Shown piece by piece: positions 2-6,143 of a DNA stretch of 6,196 nt (its first letter is position 1; the number at the start of each line of letters is the position of its first letter). The position numbers and the translations under genes were made by a program. The stretch is from Candidatus Schekmanbacteria bacterium (lineage in GTDB: Bacteria; CSSED10-310; JACPHN01). The notes beneath the pieces were generated by a model. That model was not told the origin of the DNA, did not search any database, and saw only the letters and a list, made by a program, of their open reading frames with translations. Location of the stretch: assembly GCA_016188575.1 (NCBI GenBank), contig JACPHN010000024.1, positions 1 to 6,196 on the forward strand, written 5' to 3'.

Positions 2-493
2 GTGGCGAGCGAGCCGCGCGAGCAAGATCTCCCAGTCGATGCTCGGGAAGTACTTGCGGATGTCGCCCCGCAGCACGTAGGGGAAGGCGCGCGCGAAATG
101 TTGGAATCGGCGCACGGCGGCGTGCGTGCCCTTGCCCTGGCGGCAGGCGTACGAGTCGAAGATGAATTTCGGCTCGAAGATCGGTTCGAGGATGGAGGTG
201 AGCGCATGGTGTGCCACGCGGTCACGGAAGGGCGCGGCGCTGATCATGCGGCGTTTGGAGTCGGTGACCACGAAGGTGCGGTAGGGGCCGGGACGATAGG
301 TCTGCGAGGAAAGCTCCTCGTGCAGCGCCCACAGCTCCTTTTCGCGGTCGAGGTCAAAGGCGGCGGGAGCGGGCTGCAGGTGTTTTCCACGGCGGGCGAG
401 GCGGCAGGCGGCCTCGAGGTGCGGGTAGGAGACCAGGCGGCGCCACAGGGAGCCGTCGCCGGGGTCACGTGGACCGCTGCGGCGGCGGCTCAT
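2..493 (-). CDS. DGR-type reverse transcriptase, N-terminal part (cut by window edge)
   Basis: This is the first 164 residues of a group II-intron-related reverse transcriptase of the DGR class. In that class the enzyme copies a template-repeat RNA into adenine-mutated cDNA. Residues 84-98 (ISAAPFRDRVAHHAL) form the first fingers motif. Residues 115-127 (YACRQGKGTHAAV) form the next. Residues 140-153 (VLRGDIRKYFPSID) are palm motif A, and D144 is the expected first catalytic metal-binding aspartate. The SYACR.GKGTHAAV and DIRKYFPSID strings are typical of DGR enzymes. The family is usually about 300-400 aa, so the YxDD motif and the thumb lie outside the window and integrity cannot be judged. 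The ATG overlaps the avd stop codon in an ATGA, and AGGGAG lies 8 nt upstream, so translation is probably coupled to avd. The product should act in the cytoplasm with Avd on the TR RNA. Confidence 0.93.
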   Translation of the reverse strand, partial: MSRRRSGPRDPGDGSLWRRLVSYPHLEAACRLARRGKHLQPAPAAFDLDREKELWALHEELSSQTYRPGPYRTFVVTDSKRRMISAAPFRDRVAHHALTSILEPIFEPKFIFDSYACRQGKGTHAAVRRFQHFARAFPYVLRGDIRKYFPSIDWEILLARLARH

Positions 494-852
494 GGGGACG
501 GCTCCCTGGCGTGCTGTTGCCGCAGCCAGCCGCCGATCATGCGGCCGATCTCCGTAATCTGCTCCATGGCAAAGGTGTGGGATTTCCGGCTGAGCAGGCC
601 GAGGTCGCGCAGGGCGCGAAGCAGGAACCGGAGTTTTTCCGCGGCGAGGTTGGCGCGTTCGAGCAGCGCGCGCTTGTGGCGGCTGTAGGCCGCCTCCACC
701 AGGGTCAGCAGGAGCTCGAGCGTGACGTTTTCCAGACGGTCGCCGAGGGTGAATTTGCGGCTCCTCGGCATCTTGTCGATGTGCGGGATCAGCCACAGGA
801 GCAGATCGTAGGCCTTGACGACCACAGGGAGCTGCTGCCGCTCATCGGTCAT
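490..852 (-). CDS. avd: DGR accessory protein Avd (four-helix bundle)
   Basis: This 120-aa protein has the usual Avd length (about 115-130 aa). It contains recognisable family stretches: KAYDLLLWLIPHIDK (residues 13-27), PRSRKFTLGDRLEN (29-42), a LEAAYSRHK-like helix around residue 55, and a C-terminal helix with EIGRMIGGWL. In the family, Avd forms a pentameric barrel of four-helix bundles, is basic, and binds both the reverse transcriptase and the TR-containing RNA; it is needed for mutagenic cDNA synthesis. The many Arg and Lys residues here fit nucleic-acid binding. The stop codon overlaps the reverse transcriptase ATG. There is no good Shine-Dalgarno sequence directly upstream of the ATG. 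A 13-codon ORF with a strong ribosome site reads across the start and may supply ribosomes by coupling. Extension to an earlier start is blocked by an in-frame TGA at 867-865. Confidence 0.93.
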   Translation of the reverse strand: MTDERQQLPVVVKAYDLLLWLIPHIDKMPRSRKFTLGDRLENVTLELLLTLVEAAYSRHKRALLERANLAAEKLRFLLRALRDLGLLSRKSHTFAMEQITEIGRMIGGWLRQQHAREPSP

Positions 853-883
853 TGACGCACTGTGTCATCTGGAAGTAGGGCAT
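842..883 (-). CDS. Possible 13-codon leader ORF overlapping the avd start
   Basis: The frame reads MPYFQMTQCVNDR and stops with TGA 8 nt inside avd. It is preceded by GGAGAAGG, with 6 nt between GGAG and the ATG, which is the best ribosome-binding site in the VP-avd gap. avd itself has no clear site. The ORF could be a leader whose termination re-initiates translation at the avd ATG, setting the Avd/RT level. It resembles no known peptide and is short enough to arise by chance. It lies just after the terminator-like hairpin, so it would sit near the 5' end of any transcript starting in the gap. Confidence 0.3.
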   Translation of the reverse strand: MPYFQMTQCVNDR

Positions 884-990
884 TGCCTTCTCCGTCGGGA
901 AAAAATCCTCGGCTCGCCGCCGCACGCGGCGGCGAGCCCCGGATCAGGATCAGGAAAGGACAAAGGACCCAAGAGGAAAAGCGCAAAGAA
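853..990. other. Intergenic gap between variable-protein gene and avd
   Basis: This 138-bp gap is the only substantial non-coding stretch. From the VP stop it holds a pyrimidine-rich tract (coding strand, 990-941), the 12-bp hairpin with its T-run, and the ribosome site plus leader ORF before avd. I looked for a copy of the VR here and found none, so the TR is not in this gap. No convincing -35/-10 pair is visible. avd and the reverse transcriptase are therefore probably expressed by read-through of the hairpin or from a promoter I cannot recognise. Confidence 0.7.
900..938 (-). terminator. Perfect GC-rich hairpin with U-tract: terminator and/or DGR homing hairpin
   Basis: GGCTCGCCGCCG (911-922) and CGGCGGCGAGCC (927-938) pair perfectly over 12 bp around a 4-nt loop. 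On the minus strand the stem is followed by GAGGA and then six Ts (905-900), the layout of an intrinsic terminator for the variable-protein gene, although the U-tract starts 5 nt after the stem, farther than ideal. In DGRs such as that of Bordetella phage BPP-1, a GC-rich hairpin or cruciform just downstream of VR promotes target recognition. This hairpin is 52 bp from the VP stop, and its loop (CGTG on the minus strand) is not the GRNA type described for that system. The hairpin itself is certain; which role it plays, or whether it plays both, is inference. Confidence 0.75.
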
Positions 991-3900
991 TTACAGCGTC
1001 CTCGCGCAGCGGAACCCTATGTCGTGGTACCAGTACGTCGGGTAGTTCCAGTAGCGGTCGGCGGAGCGGAGCCACGTGGCGCTAAAGTTCCACGAGCCGC
1101 CCCGATTGACGCGGTGGGACCCGGAGGAAGGGCCGGGCGGATTCTGGTACGGACTTTGCGAGTAGTACCCGCTGTCATACCAGTCGCTCACCCATTCAAA
1201 TACGTTACCCGCCATGTCGAATGCTCCATACGGCGACACCCCGAGCGGATAGCTCCCCACCGGCGTGGTCGCACCCACACAGTAGTCGTGGTTCGCATAC
1301 GTGCAGTCCGGGCTCGTATCCCCCCACGGAAAGATCCGCTGGTCCGTCCCACGCGCCGCCTTTTCCCACTCCGCCTCCGTCGGCAACCGTCTGCCCGCAT
1401 AGGCGCAGTACGCCGTCGCCTGGTAATGGTCGACGCAGTTGATCGGATGCTGCTCCTTGCCGCTGGCGTTGTACGTACACGACCCGCCGGTATTCGCCGC
1501 CGTACACGACCCCGCGGTCACGCACGACTTGTACTGCGCCGACGTCACCTCATACGTGTCGATGTAGTACGCGTCCAGATTCACCGCGTGCACCGGATCT
1601 TCGTCGCCGTACGAGTCGCACGAATCCGCCGGCGTCGTCCCGTCGCAACCCATCTGGAATTCCCCCGCCGGTACCAGCACCTCGTCCCCCACCGGTGTCC
1701 CCGGCGTCGGAGTACTCGTGGGCGTCGCCGCCAGCACAATCGTGAACGTGTCATCACTCCGGTCCGTGTACGCCACCCATGCACTGTCGTAGGTAATCAC
1801 CTTGACCCAGCAAGCACTGCTGTCGATCCCCGCGGGAATCGTCCAGTTCGTGCTGTTTCCCGCTACGCCCGACGCCACCCCGCTCCCCGATACCCCCGCG
1901 TTGGTCGTGTACTGCAGGTCGACTCCGGGTTGAATCTGGTTCGCCACACTCCACTGTACCGTAATGGTCGACCCCGCCGTCAGCACCTCCCCGCCGTTGG
2001 GGTAGGCGACCTGCGGCTGCGGGGAGATTGCCGTCGCGGTCCGCGTCGCCGTCCACGTCACGGTTGCCGTACGGGTTGGCGTCGACTGCACCGTCGGCGT
2101 GGCCGATACGATCGTGAACGTCACGTCGCTCTGATCCGTGTACGGCGTCCACGAGCCATCATAGGTAATCACCTTCACCCAGCAATTGCTCGAATCGATG
2201 CCCCCGGGAATGCTCCACTCGTAGCTCATTCCCGCGACACCAGAGGCCATCGCTGTCCAGTTTACCCCACTGTTCGTCGTGTATTGCAGATCCACCCCGG
2301 GTTGTACTTGATTCCCCACCGTCCACTCCACCGTGATCGTGCTCCCCGCCGTCAGCACCTCGCCGCCGTTCGGGTAGACCACCTGCGGCACCGGGTACGT
2401 TACCGTCGCGGTCCGCGTCGCCGTCCACGACACGGTTGCCGTACGGGTTGGCGTCGACTGCACCGTCGGCGTCCGCGTCGCGCTGGGTTGCACGGGAACC
2501 GTCGCGGTCCGCGTCGCCGTCGGCTGGACTCCTACCGTCGGCGTCGGGGTCAGCCCCCCTCCATCCTGAGCAACCGTCACCTCCAAACCCGCCACTGTGA
2601 TCATCCCCTCGCGAGGAGACAGCGTATTGCCCTCGACGAAATATGTCACGGTTCCAGGGCCGATGCCGGAGGCATCGTACAGAAAGGAAATCCAGCCCAC
2701 GTCGGCGATCGCAGTCCACAAACAACCCCTCGTGGTCTCCACATCGATGCTCCCGGAGCCTCCGAGCAACGTGAATGAGGCGTTCGCCGGATCAATCGCG
2801 TACGTGCAGTCTCCCAACGTAACGTCGATCGTGCTGGTTTGCGTCAGACCCGCGAGGTCCTCTGCAACCGCCTTCAGCACATAGTTGCCGCCCGGAAGCT
2901 CCCGTGCATCCCAGACCACCGCGGGCTCGGTTCCCACGTCCGAAGCGATCGCTTGATCGCCTCCTCCAGCGTTGTAGTAAAACTCCACGCTGTTGATACC
3001 TGTGTTGTCGCTCGCATCAGCGGCCACGCGAACCAGGCCGGTTACTGAGGCCCCATCGCTCGGATCGCTGAATGCAACCGATGGTGGCGTCGTGTCCGTG
3101 GCCCCCGTATTGTCTATGGTGAAGGGGGACGAAAAGGATTTCTCACCCTCACCCAGCGACCCGCGCTCGTCCCAGGGTCGCACCTCCAGCCACAGATCCT
3201 CCTTGACCGTTCCGGGAAAGGTCGCGGCAGTATTGATCCAGACCGTCACCGTCGTGTACGGGGCCTCGATGGGAATGTCCTTGACCCAGCATATCTGCGG
3301 CGGACTGACGCCAGGGTCCTGCACGATGTGCCCATGGCTGGTCGCGGACAGCACCGGGCACTGTCGGGTCGGCCACCAGCTCCAGCCCCAGGCGTACCGG
3401 ATCTCCACCGTGGCGGTGGGACTGACGGCGTCGTAGATGCGAAAAGTCAGGGGAATCTGACCGGCGAAACCGGCGACCGCCACGCGCGATACCACCGGAT
3501 CGTGATCCACAGGCTGCGCTTCCAAGATTTCGATTCGCAACGGACGCTCTTCTCCCGGAGCATAGACCCAACACTTTCCATAATACTGATCCTCCTGGAA
3601 ACCCGCCTGTACCATTTCCTCGACGATAGCGTCCGTACCTTTGTCGACAAGAAATGCGATTCCAGCTTTGGCGTCCTCGACACCCAGATGCAGGGTCCTG
3701 GCAACTTCGGGGGCGACACGGCCCGCGACACCGCTCATCGCCGCGCTTATCGCCATTCCGCGCAGCTCGTCTGCGATTGTGTGCAGATCGGCGCGGGCGC
3801 AAACCCGGTAGATGCCACTATCCCAGTCAAAGTCGTGCCACACATCCACTGCCTCGTAGACGTGGAACGCCGTGGTGCCCACTGCGGCAACTTTCATCAG

Positions 3901-5412
3901 TATTAGTGCCACCTGGATCACTCGGTTCGCCGCGAAGGATTCTCGGAGCTCGTCGCTGCTCAGGCGAACCGTGCTCGGGAAGCGTTCCGAGCTGGGATCG
4001 TAGGCGGTCACGATCAGTTGCCGCGCCGTCAAGGCGGCGTAGCATTTTGCTCCCGAAACGGGGTTGCCGCTGCCATCCCGGGTCGTACAGGTGACTTCAC
4101 CTGCGCGCCGGCCGCCGGGCGTTGCCAGCGTCAGGGTCACGGATCCCGTGGCATCCGTGGTGCCATCGCCGATGGCGGCGGGCTCCGCCCCCGGCGTTAC
4201 CTGCGCTTCGTTGCTGGTCTGAAAGCTGCCGTCGGCGTCGAAAGCGAGAACCTTGTAGAAGTAGGTCATTTGCGCTTCGACGCTGGTGTCGGTGTAGGTT
4301 CTCGAAGATTCGTCGCCGACGGTGGCGGCCAGAAACCAGTCGTCGGGATCGGCCAGGACCGCGCCGGGAATCACCACGGCAGCCGCGCCAAGAGCAAGGA
4401 AAAGGGTAGCGCGCCGGCGTCGTGAGCGGATCAGGGCGCCGGATATCGCAAGCAAGAGAAACCCGGCGGGAATACCGATGAGGCCGACTGACGACGGCAC
4501 GCCAAAGTCGGAGGTGACAGATCGCCGCACCTCATAATGGTGGAAGCGCTGGAGATTGGCGGCGGTCCAGGAGAGAGTCACAGATGAGTCGGTCGCGTCC
4601 GTGACTGTAAGGGTCAAAGGGGGAGCGGTGACGGAGCCGTATGAAACGCGAACCCAGTCGTGGTACGCCTTGCCCGCGGACCCCGACGAGCGACTGCCGA
4701 GGACCACATTCCGACCCTCGAGAAGCGACGCATGCAGCTTCTTGGTGCTCGTCCACAGCAAGGTGTCGTCGACGTGGAACCGTACGCTCCGATCCGAACC
4801 GACCTCGATCCTGAGCCGATGCCAGCCATTCGCGTAGGCGTCAGCGTCGAATGTATATTCCGGCATTCCCTCAGTGCTTTCATCCTCGGCGACAATGCCA
4901 CCGAAGAACCACGCCTTCCGGCGATACTCCGCCGGCGCGCCCCAGCACGCGTCGCCAACCGCGCTCAGGTTGAACCAGATGCCGTGACCTCCGCTGAACC
5001 CTTGTTCGGACGTGGATGGGTCGGCGTCCCTGGTGAGCCCGATTTGAGCGTCGGCCCAGCATCCCCCAAGGTCCGCAAAATCCAGGTAGACCTCGGACTC
5101 GATTGTCATGCCTTCGGTGCTGCCCACAAGGGTCTTCGAGAACCCGCCGCTGTCATAGTTGGGGTCGCCGTTATTGTCGAACACCCCCGTGCGGTCGTAC
5201 GCCGAGGAAGCCCATTGCGGCAGCGGGCTCCCGTAAAGTGTCCAGTTACTCAGGCCCGACCCAGCGAAGTCGTCGAAGAGAGCTTCGGCGGCTGAGGCCG
5301 CGCTGGCAACAAGCGACAGGGCCAGGGCGGCCGCGGCGGCGCCGCCCCAGGCAGTCCGCAAGCACCGGTGTCTTTGCCGATCGGTTTCGCAGGTTGCATG
5401 CGCACTCATCAC
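991..5412 (-). CDS. DGR variable protein: secreted multidomain protein with C-terminal FGE/C-type-lectin-fold domain
   Basis: This 1473-aa protein is the target gene of the DGR. Domains in order: Sec signal peptide (1-42, hydrophobic core AAAAALALSLVASA, cleavage near ASA/AEA, no lipobox Cys); concanavalin-A-like module (about 43-258); fibronectin type III (264-406) split by a membrane-hairpin insert (305-354); unassigned segment (408-775) with a hydrophobic stretch near 497-521; Ig-like domain starting at TPPSVAFSDP (about 775-868); BACON-like domain (869-951); TPT/TRTAT linker; two KRE9/KNH-like modules starting PNGGEVLTAGSTITV; a second linker; FGE-sulfatase/CLec domain (1241-1473) with LPTEAEWEKAARG, FPWGD, AFDMAGNVFEW and RGGSW. 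The catalytic Cys pair that follows GGS in true FGE enzymes is absent, so this is a binding scaffold rather than an enzyme. GTG at 5412 has GGAGG 6 nt upstream; ATG at 5409 (9 nt) is equally possible. Residue numbers use the GTG. The start overlaps the upstream gene's stop. Many paired Cys in the last domain suggest disulfides outside the cytoplasm. The ligand is unknown. Confidence 0.92.
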   Translation of the reverse strand: MMSAHATCETDRQRHRCLRTAWGGAAAAALALSLVASAASAAEALFDDFAGSGLSNWTLYGSPLPQWASSAYDRTGVFDNNGDPNYDSGGFSKTLVGSTEGMTIESEVYLDFADLGGCWADAQIGLTRDADPSTSEQGFSGGHGIWFNLSAVGDACWGAPAEYRRKAWFFGGIVAEDESTEGMPEYTFDADAYANGWHRLRIEVGSDRSVRFHVDDTLLWTSTKKLHASLLEGRNVVLGSRSSGSAGKAYHDWVRVSYGSVTAPPLTLTVTDATDSSVTLSWTAANLQRFHHYEVRRSVTSDFGVPSSVGLIGIPAGFLLLAISGALIRSRRRRATLFLALGAAAVVIPGAVLADPDDWFLAATVGDESSRTYTDTSVEAQMTYFYKVLAFDADGSFQTSNEAQVTPGAEPAAIGDGTTDATGSVTLTLATPGGRRAGEVTCTTRDGSGNPVSGAKCYAALTARQLIVTAYDPSSERFPSTVRLSSDELRESFAANRVIQVALILMKVAAVGTTAFHVYEAVDVWHDFDWDSGIYRVCARADLHTIADELRGMAISAAMSGVAGRVAPEVARTLHLGVEDAKAGIAFLVDKGTDAIVEEMVQAGFQEDQYYGKCWVYAPGEERPLRIEILEAQPVDHDPVVSRVAVAGFAGQIPLTFRIYDAVSPTATVEIRYAWGWSWWPTRQCPVLSATSHGHIVQDPGVSPPQICWVKDIPIEAPYTTVTVWINTAATFPGTVKEDLWLEVRPWDERGSLGEGEKSFSSPFTIDNTGATDTTPPSVAFSDPSDGASVTGLVRVAADASDNTGINSVEFYYNAGGGDQAIASDVGTEPAVVWDARELPGGNYVLKAVAEDLAGLTQTSTIDVTLGDCTYAIDPANASFTLLGGSGSIDVETTRGCLWTAIADVGWISFLYDASGIGPGTVTYFVEGNTLSPREGMITVAGLEVTVAQDGGGLTPTPTVGVQPTATRTATVPVQPSATRTPTVQSTPTRTATVSWTATRTATVTYPVPQVVYPNGGEVLTAGSTITVEWTVGNQVQPGVDLQYTTNSGVNWTAMASGVAGMSYEWSIPGGIDSSNCWVKVITYDGSWTPYTDQSDVTFTIVSATPTVQSTPTRTATVTWTATRTATAISPQPQVAYPNGGEVLTAGSTITVQWSVANQIQPGVDLQYTTNAGVSGSGVASGVAGNSTNWTIPAGIDSSACWVKVITYDSAWVAYTDRSDDTFTIVLAATPTSTPTPGTPVGDEVLVPAGEFQMGCDGTTPADSCDSYGDEDPVHAVNLDAYYIDTYEVTSAQYKSCVTAGSCTAANTGGSCTYNASGKEQHPINCVDHYQATAYCAYAGRRLPTEAEWEKAARGTDQRIFPWGDTSPDCTYANHDYCVGATTPVGSYPLGVSPYGAFDMAGNVFEWVSDWYDSGYYSQSPYQNPPGPSSGSHRVNRGGSWNFSATWLRSADRYWNYPTYWYHDIGFRCARTL
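997..1107 (-). other. DGR variable repeat (VR) in the last codons of the variable protein
   Basis: Residues 1436-1472 run from NRGGSW to GFRCART, the region varied in FGE/CLec-type DGR targets. Between the constant GGSW and GFRCAR, variable-looking positions are N1442, F1443, S1444, W1447, Y1454, W1455, N1456, Y1457, Y1460, W1461, Y1462, H1463 and D1464. Their codons are AAC, TTT, AGC, TGG, TAC, TGG, AAC, TAC, TAC, TGG, TAC, CAC and GAC. All fit AAY or AGG/AAG templates with changes only at the A positions, the adenine-specific DGR signature. The GC-rich 3' end (GGGTTCCGCTGCGCGAGG) should hold the initiation-of-mutagenic-homing site. Exact borders need the TR, which is not in the window. Confidence 0.85.
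1739..2472 (-). repeat. 372-bp-period tandem duplication encoding two KRE9-like Ig modules and linkers
   Basis: Two in-frame copies, about 1739-2100 and 2111-2472, repeat with a period of 372 bp (124 codons). Each encodes a Thr/Arg linker (TPTRTATV.WTATRTAT) and a roughly 90-aa beta-sandwich-like module starting YPNGGEVLTAGSTITV and ending DDTFTIV or DVTFTIV. The linker part is almost identical: 2031-2100 and 2403-2472 differ at one base by eye. The module parts have diverged more (for example NWTAMASG against SGSGVASG). A shorter element, GTCGCGGTCCGCGTCGCCGT, recurs a third time near 2501. The arrangement suggests a fairly recent duplication or ongoing homogenisation in a stalk-like part of the protein. 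Confidence 0.85.
4351..4500 (-). other. Transmembrane-hairpin insert inside the fibronectin type III domain
   Basis: Residues 305-354 form VPSS, a hydrophobic helix (about 309-328, GLIGIPAGFLLLAISGALI), the basic loop RSRRRR (329-334), and a second hydrophobic helix (335-353) ending GAVLA before DPDDW. Fibronectin strands A-C (SSVTLSW, HHYEVRRS) lie before the insert and strands E-G (SRTYTDT, TYFYKVLAFD, NEAQVTP) after it, so it sits in one loop of the fold. By the positive-inside rule the basic loop would be cytoplasmic, anchoring a periplasmic protein by a hairpin. The first half resembles a C-terminal sorting signal (short motif, helix, Arg cluster), and the second half looks like a signal peptide with an AVLA/D cleavage site. 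Function is inferred only. Confidence 0.7.
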
Positions 5413-6143
5413 TGCAAGCCTCCTTCTTCGTCCAGGTTTGTGGTCCGGGCACCAGTCGGGTCACGGTCGAAAGCGGCGTCGGTCGGTGAGGCGGGCGCGG
5501 GCGGCGCGTCTTCCCCCTCATCCGAGTCTTCCTGCGCGGCACGGGTGGCGCGCAGCTTCTGAAAGTCCTTGTCGGCCCGGCCCGCGATCGCGAGCAGCGT
5601 GCGCCGGAACGCGACCAGATCCTCCTCGAACGCAGCGCCCGCCGCGCGGGTGGCGGCGAGCCGCGCCTGGTACTGGCGGTCCGCGGCCTCCGCCTCGGCC
5701 CATTCCTGGCGCGCCGCCACCGTTGCCGTGTCCAGGGCGGCCAGCGCCGCGGCGGCGTAGGGCAGCGGCTCGCCGGCCGCGGTCCGCGCCTCTTCGATCT
5801 GCTCGGCCAGGCGCTCGGCATCGGCCAGCAGGTCGTCGGGCACCGCGCTGCCGGCGGCGTAGGACGCGGCGTCGAACCCGGGGACGTCGCGGGCGAGCAG
5901 CGGCAGCCAGGCGCGCACGGCAGCCAGCATCGCCGCCGCCGCGCCGCGGCCCTCGTCCAGCTCTCGGCGCCACGTCGATTCGTAGCGCAGGGTCGCGTCA
6001 TAAGCGGCGATGAAGGCCGTCGCGTGCTCCTTCAGCACGGGGTCGTAGGCGGCGATGGCGGGGGACTCGCCGCCCCGGCGCTCGAGGACGCGGATGGCGC
6101 GAGGGGCCAGACGGCGAAGTTTCCAGTTGGGGCTGCTCGGCAT
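5409..6143 (-). CDS. Helical cytoplasmic protein of unknown function, translationally coupled to the variable protein
   Basis: I do not recognise this 244-aa protein. It has no signal peptide or membrane segment. It is rich in Ala, Glu and Arg and looks almost wholly alpha-helical, with long amphipathic or coiled-coil-prone stretches (for example LLADAERLAEQIEEAR and AARQEWAEAEAADRQYQAR). The C-terminal ~50 residues are acidic and Pro-rich and probably disordered (SDEGEDAPPAPASP). The N-terminus is basic (WKLRRLAPRAIRVLERRGG). The start is well supported: GGAGGAG lies just upstream of the ATG. The last codons (EEGGLQ) contain the GGAGG used by the variable-protein gene, and the stop TGA overlaps that gene's GTG/ATG, so the two are co-translated. 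A role in secretion, assembly or signalling for the displayed protein is possible but unproven. Confidence 0.85.
   Translation of the reverse strand: MPSSPNWKLRRLAPRAIRVLERRGGESPAIAAYDPVLKEHATAFIAAYDATLRYESTWRRELDEGRGAAAAMLAAVRAWLPLLARDVPGFDAASYAAGSAVPDDLLADAERLAEQIEEARTAAGEPLPYAAAALAALDTATVAARQEWAEAEAADRQYQARLAATRAAGAAFEEDLVAFRRTLLAIAGRADKDFQKLRATRAAQEDSDEGEDAPPAPASPTDAAFDRDPTGARTTNLDEEGGLQ

What the first reader, a model, noticed from the sequence alone, without database searches (positions are those of the whole stretch)
2..5412. DGR cassette with an unusually large, surface-type variable protein
The sequence shows a DGR-type reverse transcriptase (DIRKYFPSID motif A), Avd, and a target ending in an FGE/CLec fold, all on one strand. 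Known FGE/CLec DGR targets such as Treponema TvpA and Legionella LdtA are displayed at the cell surface. Here the target is 1473 aa with at least six different modules before the variable tip, so diversification of a long stalked adhesin or receptor is the likely purpose. The ligand is unknown.
Basis: partly seen in the sequence, partly recalled or inferred. Interest (0 to 1): 0.75.

Follow-up and report, generated by a model that had tools for sequence, protein, structure and literature searches.

The report
Contig-cut DGR with many targets
This is the left-truncated core of a diversity-generating retroelement, a known kind of bacterial mutation machine, and the same genome carries at least six more genes with a related hypervariable tip, several on quite different protein bodies, so one machine may be diversifying a small family of membrane or secreted proteins.

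Summary
On the minus strand lie UP (244 aa, unknown), a 1473-aa target ending in an FGE/C-type-lectin domain, Avd, and the first 164 residues of a DGR-type reverse transcriptase (RT) cut by the contig end. No template repeat (TR) is in the window or was found in the 9.2-Mb assembly; relatives with the same gene order carry it about 1.1 kb after the RT start, i.e. beyond the window. Adenine-directed mutagenesis is still well supported: five variable regions (VRs; window plus four paralogs) differ at codon positions 1-2 and hardly at 3, and all 25 adenine columns of a distant relative's TR are variable here, against 16/71 other columns (p = 1e-12). Six further FGE-tailed genes occur, several on unrelated bodies (subtilase, HExxH protease, cohesin/dockerin). 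A second cassette has its Avd/RT middle replaced by a 23S-rRNA-IVP element. "Surface adhesin" is not established: the organism has an outer membrane, and the target carries an internal transmembrane hairpin that splits an fn3 domain, so an inner-membrane anchor is possible. A new member of a known kind; two side features may be new: the split fn3 and a pyrimidine-rich tract after the VR.

The parts
5409..6143 (-). UP: 244-aa protein without family match, overlapping the target start by 4 bp; possible partner of the target
   Evidence: ORF; no Pfam, PADLOC or PHROG match; 93% DNA identity to a copy upstream of the C111 target
991..5412 (-). Target gene, 1473 aa (GTG start; ATG at 5409 fits the AAGGAGG better), signal-peptide-like start, several extracellular-type modules, FGE tip
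4177..4623 (-). fn3 domain split by a two-TM hairpin (TM segments aa 312-328 and 337-353, loop RSRRRR; hairpin about 4354-4479)
   Evidence: hydropathy; six-row alignment; genome-wide search. Prediction only; structure model failed
2869..3084 (-). Big_7 Ig-like domain (aa 777-848)
   Evidence: Pfam E 8.4e-11
1000..1689 (-). FGE-sulfatase / C-type-lectin-fold domain (aa 1242-1471) carrying the VR
   Evidence: Pfam E 1.4e-55; fold match to TvpA Z 16.6
1018..1104 (-). VR core, 29 codons, about 18 of them variable between paralogs
991..1017 (-). IMH-like conserved 3' tail of the VR, with the stop codon
   Evidence: 85% mean identity between paralogs against 67% in the core
939..990 (-). Pyrimidine-rich tract between the stop codon and the hairpin
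   Evidence: 76% C+T in the 50 nt after the VR end; function unknown
911..938 (-). GC-rich hairpin, 12-bp stem, 4-nt loop, followed by T6 (900-905): terminator-like, or DGR target hairpin
490..852 (-). Avd, 120 aa
   Evidence: NF033474 103.8 bits, cut-off 80
2..493 (-). DGR-type RT, first 164 residues (motif DIRKYFPSID), cut by the contig end; ATGA overlap with Avd

Best explanation
It is a chromosomal diversity-generating retroelement of the Avd-type, FGE-target class in an outer-membrane-bearing bacterium. The RT, with Avd, is expected to copy a TR that lies about 0.6 kb beyond the window's left edge, randomise its adenines, and paste the cDNA over the VR at the 3' end of the target gene. 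That varies about 18 codons at the tip of a C-type-lectin fold held on a long membrane-anchored or secreted body, most likely changing what the tip binds. The same machinery probably also diversifies, or once diversified, FGE-tailed genes elsewhere in the genome that share the VR 3' end (four of them also the downstream hairpin) but have no intact RT or Avd beside them. Shown: parts, gene order, adenine-directed VR diversity, paralogous targets. Inferred: TR position, action in trans, ligand binding, present activity.
For: Avd over curated cut-off; RT closest to a DGR RT among solved structures and aligned with RTs that adjoin TR/VR pairs; the C111 copy, 99% identical in the overlap, continues with the DGR-type motif GIPIGNQTSQFFANAYL. 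VR core: variable columns 19/29, 16/29 and 5/29 at codon positions 1, 2, 3, no invariant A in 87 columns against 13 in 96 upstream. A columns of a distant relative's TR: 25/25 variable here, other columns 16/71, p 1.4e-12; five more TRs agree. TR found 1.05-1.13 kb after the RT match start in six relatives with the same order. Six further FGE-tailed genes with VR-like ends.
Against: No TR was found in the assembly. The RT catalytic YxDD motif is not in the window. No read data, so present activity is untested. The sister cassette on C111 is broken. VR differences are between paralogs, not alleles.
Confidence: 0.88

Rival explanations
1. A relic DGR: the system once diversified these genes, but RT or TR is now lost and the VR diversity is a frozen record.
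For: TR not found in the assembly; C111 cassette broken by an IVP element; RT incomplete in the contig.
Against: Both losses coincide with contig ends. The window's Avd and RT half are open frames without disruption.
Confidence: 0.25
2. A periplasm-facing sensor rather than a surface adhesin: the target is held in the inner membrane by the hairpin and its variable tip senses ligands or intruders in the periplasm.
For: Internal two-TM hairpin with a basic loop; Omp85 present. Periplasmic DGR targets are predicted in Thiohalocapsa (PMC10907252). Other targets carry protease-like bodies.
Against: The topology is a hydropathy prediction; the hairpin could be processed. No signalling domain was recognised in the window target. 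Roux et al. (PMC8144416) read most cellular targets as membrane-anchored proteins binding extracellular substrates.
Confidence: 0.4
3. No DGR action: the FGE tips are ordinary paralogs diversified by selection and recombination, and the RT is coincidental.
For: Domain shuffling is real: C136 and C91 share 96% of the subtilase-side DNA but only 75% of the FGE body.
Against: Selection does not explain near-invariant third positions, nor the match of variable sites to adenines in relatives' TRs, nor the adjoining RT and Avd.
Confidence: 0.03

Closest known systems
Treponema denticola DGR with TvpA and remote targets (2y3c; PMC4891356)
   Same: FGE-type C-type-lectin target (sequence E 1.2e-22; fold Z 16.6); two to seven targets per genome, some remote from the core
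   Different: Treponema targets are mostly predicted lipoproteins of modest size; here the window target is 1473 aa, with an internal TM hairpin
DGRs of uncultured bacteria with RTs 46-58% identical (L070-L079: Rubripirellula, Kuenenia, Deltaproteobacteria, Anaerolineae MAGs)
   Same: Avd and an FGE match beside the RT; gene order target-Avd-RT-TR in L072, L074, L076, L079
   Different: L073, L075, L077, L078 place Avd after the RT; their target bodies were not compared with the window target
Thiohalocapsa PB-PSB1 multi-locus DGRs (PMC10907252)
   Same: Several target loci in one genome, some with machinery missing or replaced by repeat arrays, trans action proposed
   Different: Those targets carry STAND NTPase, vWA and similar conflict-system domains; none was recognised in the window target
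BPP-1 bRT/Avd/Mtd
   Same: RT homology (8ub7), Avd family, C-type-lectin fold of the tip, hairpin downstream of the VR
   Different: Phage-borne, single target; its hairpin family has 7-10 bp stems, GRNA loops and 4-34 bp spacing, here 12 bp, CGTG and about 55 nt

Membership tests
Diversity-generating retroelement | RT of the DGR class | tested here: met
   N-terminal half only: best solved match 8ub7, aligns with DGR RTs; the SQ motif is seen only in the C111 copy
Diversity-generating retroelement | RT catalytic motif YxDD | not testable with these tools
   beyond the contig end; not found elsewhere in the genome
Diversity-generating retroelement | Accessory protein (Avd) | tested here: met
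   NF033474 103.8 bits, cut-off 80
Diversity-generating retroelement | Template repeat near the RT | tested here: inconclusive
   none in the assembly, but the expected place lies beyond the contig end
Diversity-generating retroelement | VR differences confined largely to adenine positions of the TR | tested here: met
   indirect, with TRs of relatives: 25/25 A columns variable, 16/71 others
Diversity-generating retroelement | Mutagenic retrohoming | not testable with these tools
   needs reads or an experiment
TvpA/FGE-type DGR variable protein | VR in the last part of an FGE/C-type-lectin domain | tested here: met
Surface-displayed DGR target (TvpA, LdtA type) | Exposure on the outer surface | not testable with these tools
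   no lipobox seen by eye; internal TM hairpin predicted; outer membrane present

The most novel reading that the evidence does not exclude
The target site of this DGR clade has a second recognition element beyond the IMH: a sense-strand pyrimidine-rich array of degenerate 7-8-nt repeats between VR and GC hairpin, present after VRs and not after TRs. It may be bound by the four-helix Avd; heptamer arrays also flank two of the three IVP (PF05635, a family that Avd also matches weakly) genes of this genome.
Probability: 0.25. Interest if true: 0.75.

Novelty: new member of a known kind. Interest (0 to 1): 0.45.

Why it matters
One retroelement diversifying a family of unrelated bodies (proteases, Ig-like stalks, cohesin/dockerin proteins) that share a swappable tip would be a bacterial repertoire system, here in a phylum with only eight genomes in the held collection. 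If the VR-side tract is a real target signal, it would help explain how remote VRs are recognised and how new targets arise, which can be tested directly.

Tried and rejected
(1) The RT piece on C164 is not the missing half: by eye its motifs look like a group II intron RT and it is at another contig end. (2) TR search with the VR and with an inferred TR found only VRs. (3) Same-phylum genomes hold only RTs 27-32% identical. (4) Viral contigs and phages hold only RTs below 50% identity, so no sign of a phage origin. (5) Structure of the split fn3 alone: mean pLDDT 49, unusable. (6) Hairpin as the BPP-1-type cruciform: loop and spacing do not fit, so left open. (7) Exosortase sorting of the hairpin: one exosortase hit of 35 bits, but such signals are normally C-terminal, so not adopted. 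(9) Several family-search calls failed on wrong frames and were repeated.

Full report
The window is a whole contig. It is contig C70 (6196 bp) of a 9.2-Mb, 275-contig genome (94% complete). This explains the truncated RT and the missing TR. On the minus strand the order is UP (6143-5409), target (5412-991), Avd (852-490) and RT (493-2, open to the edge). UP/target and Avd/RT each overlap by 4 bp. A hairpin followed by T6 lies between target and Avd.

Identity of the parts. Avd passes the curated NCBIfam cut-off (103.8 bits, cut-off 80). The RT half matches the RT of PDB entry 8ub7 (BPP-1 bRT by my own knowledge; the tool calls it 'Reverse transcriptase') far better (1.7e-22) than any group II intron RT (2e-13). 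It aligns at 43-58% to RTs, most of which adjoin TR/VR pairs in other genomes. The target's last 230 residues are an FGE domain (1.4e-55). A model of it (mean pLDDT 67) matches FGE enzymes, TvpA (Z 16.6) and BPP-1 Mtd (Z 10.5-10.7).

Adenine-directed variation. Five genes in this genome (window, C111, C136, C119, C221) have VRs that align without gaps. In the 29-codon core, codon positions 1, 2 and 3 vary in 19, 16 and 5 columns; upstream they vary in 6, 9 and 10 of 32. The core has no invariant A (0/87, against 13/96 upstream). An outside test: in the TR of a distant relative (L066), all 25 A columns correspond to columns variable here, against 16 of 71 others (p 1.4e-12). Five more relatives' TRs give p 1e-12 to 7e-11. 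These are paralogs, not alleles, so this shows past mutagenesis, not present activity.

Where the TR should be. In six relatives with the same gene order (L061, L062, L072, L074, L076, L079) the TR follows the RT, 1.05-1.13 kb from the RT match start. Here that would be about 0.6 kb beyond the window edge. Searches of the assembly with the VR and with an inferred TR found only VRs.

A family of targets. FGE-tailed genes with DGR-like VRs sit on C111 (HExxH metalloprotease-like body upstream of a scaffold gap), C136 and C91 (subtilase), C119, C221 (dockerin and cohesin; two FGE domains in tandem, the second cut by the contig end) and C185. Further FGE proteins (C73, C215, C267) have more divergent ends. 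The DNA shared with the window starts at or just before the FGE domain; in C136 and C91 it ends at the hairpin. C136 and C91 are 96% identical in the subtilase part and 75% in the FGE body, which suggests the tip is exchanged between bodies (inference). Remote targets are known from Treponema denticola, and action in trans is proposed for Thiohalocapsa.

A broken twin cassette. C111 carries UP (93% DNA identity, with a frame-shifting gap), a target, and then Avd and RT whose middle is replaced by a 23S_rRNA_IVP gene (PF05635, E 5e-33). Its RT remainder is 99% identical to the window's end and runs 197 bp further with GIPIGNQTSQFFANAYL. The replacement is bounded by inverted heptamer arrays (GAGTTTC GGGTTTC TAGTTTC ...). 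Repeat arrays replacing DGR parts are described in PMC10907252. A chimeric assembly at this contig end cannot be excluded.

Membrane topology. Hydropathy shows a signal-peptide-like start and two TM segments at aa 312-353 around RSRRRR, inside an fn3 domain. The same split fn3 occurs in other targets and in some 15-20 frames of the genome, with weaker cases in one same-phylum genome and one of another phylum. The genome has five strong Omp85 hits. An inner-membrane anchor is therefore as plausible as surface display. This is prediction only; the structure attempt failed.

VR-side flanking tract. The 50 nt after the VR are pyrimidine-rich in the window (76%), four paralogs (68-74%) and twelve relatives (58-80%). 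Combined p is 3e-13 against same-strand windows, and 4e-7 against 198 frame ends; after TRs the mean is 48%. Period 6-10 repeats, mostly 7-8, are enriched after VRs (mean z 1.5, 9 of 25 with z above 2) and not after TRs (mean z -0.3, 1 of 21), but not significantly in the window itself (p 0.11). I noticed the tract first and tested it afterwards on the same loci, some of them related, and I chose the twelve relatives after seeing that more distant DGRs lack it, so these p-values are optimistic. A terminator-related or mobile-repeat origin is not excluded. No held paper combines DGR with the words polypyrimidine or pyrimidine-rich; the library is incomplete.

Verdict. A real and mostly ordinary DGR, cut by an assembly edge, in a genome with a family of targets. 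The surface-adhesin reading is open. The split fn3 and the VR-side tract are the parts worth following.

Noticed in passing
window 4177-4623 (-); also L057, L058 (two), L059, L113, L116, L118-L120, L123-L125, L128; weaker L130, L133: An fn3 domain split by a two-TM hairpin with an Arg-rich loop recurs in some 15-20 proteins of this genome. The first TM resembles an exosortase-type sorting tail and the second a signal peptide. I found no description of it in the one paper search made.
   Followed up: partly
window 939-990 (-); L061-L063, L065, L072-L079: Pyrimidine-rich, degenerate 7-8-nt repeat tract directly after the VR, absent after TRs.
   Followed up: partly
L150 (C111:59532-59846), L151 (C226:27326-27622): Two of three IVP (PF05635) genes of the genome are flanked by inverted heptamer arrays; one sits inside a DGR cassette and has replaced part of Avd and RT.
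   Followed up: partly
L056 (C221) 5059-8586: A target with two FGE domains in tandem, the first with an internal VR that is not followed by the hairpin; the body has dockerin and cohesin domains.
   Followed up: no
L055 (C91) and L053 (C136): Two subtilase-FGE fusion proteins, 96% identical in the subtilase-side DNA and 75% in the FGE body, as if the tip had been exchanged.
   Followed up: partly
window 5409-6143 (-): UP, a 244-aa protein of unknown family, overlaps the target start and is duplicated with the cassette on C111, where it carries a frame-shifting gap.
   Followed up: no
L001 (G000:C164:42327-42521): A separate RT fragment at another contig end, by eye of group II intron type, not part of this DGR.
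   Followed up: no
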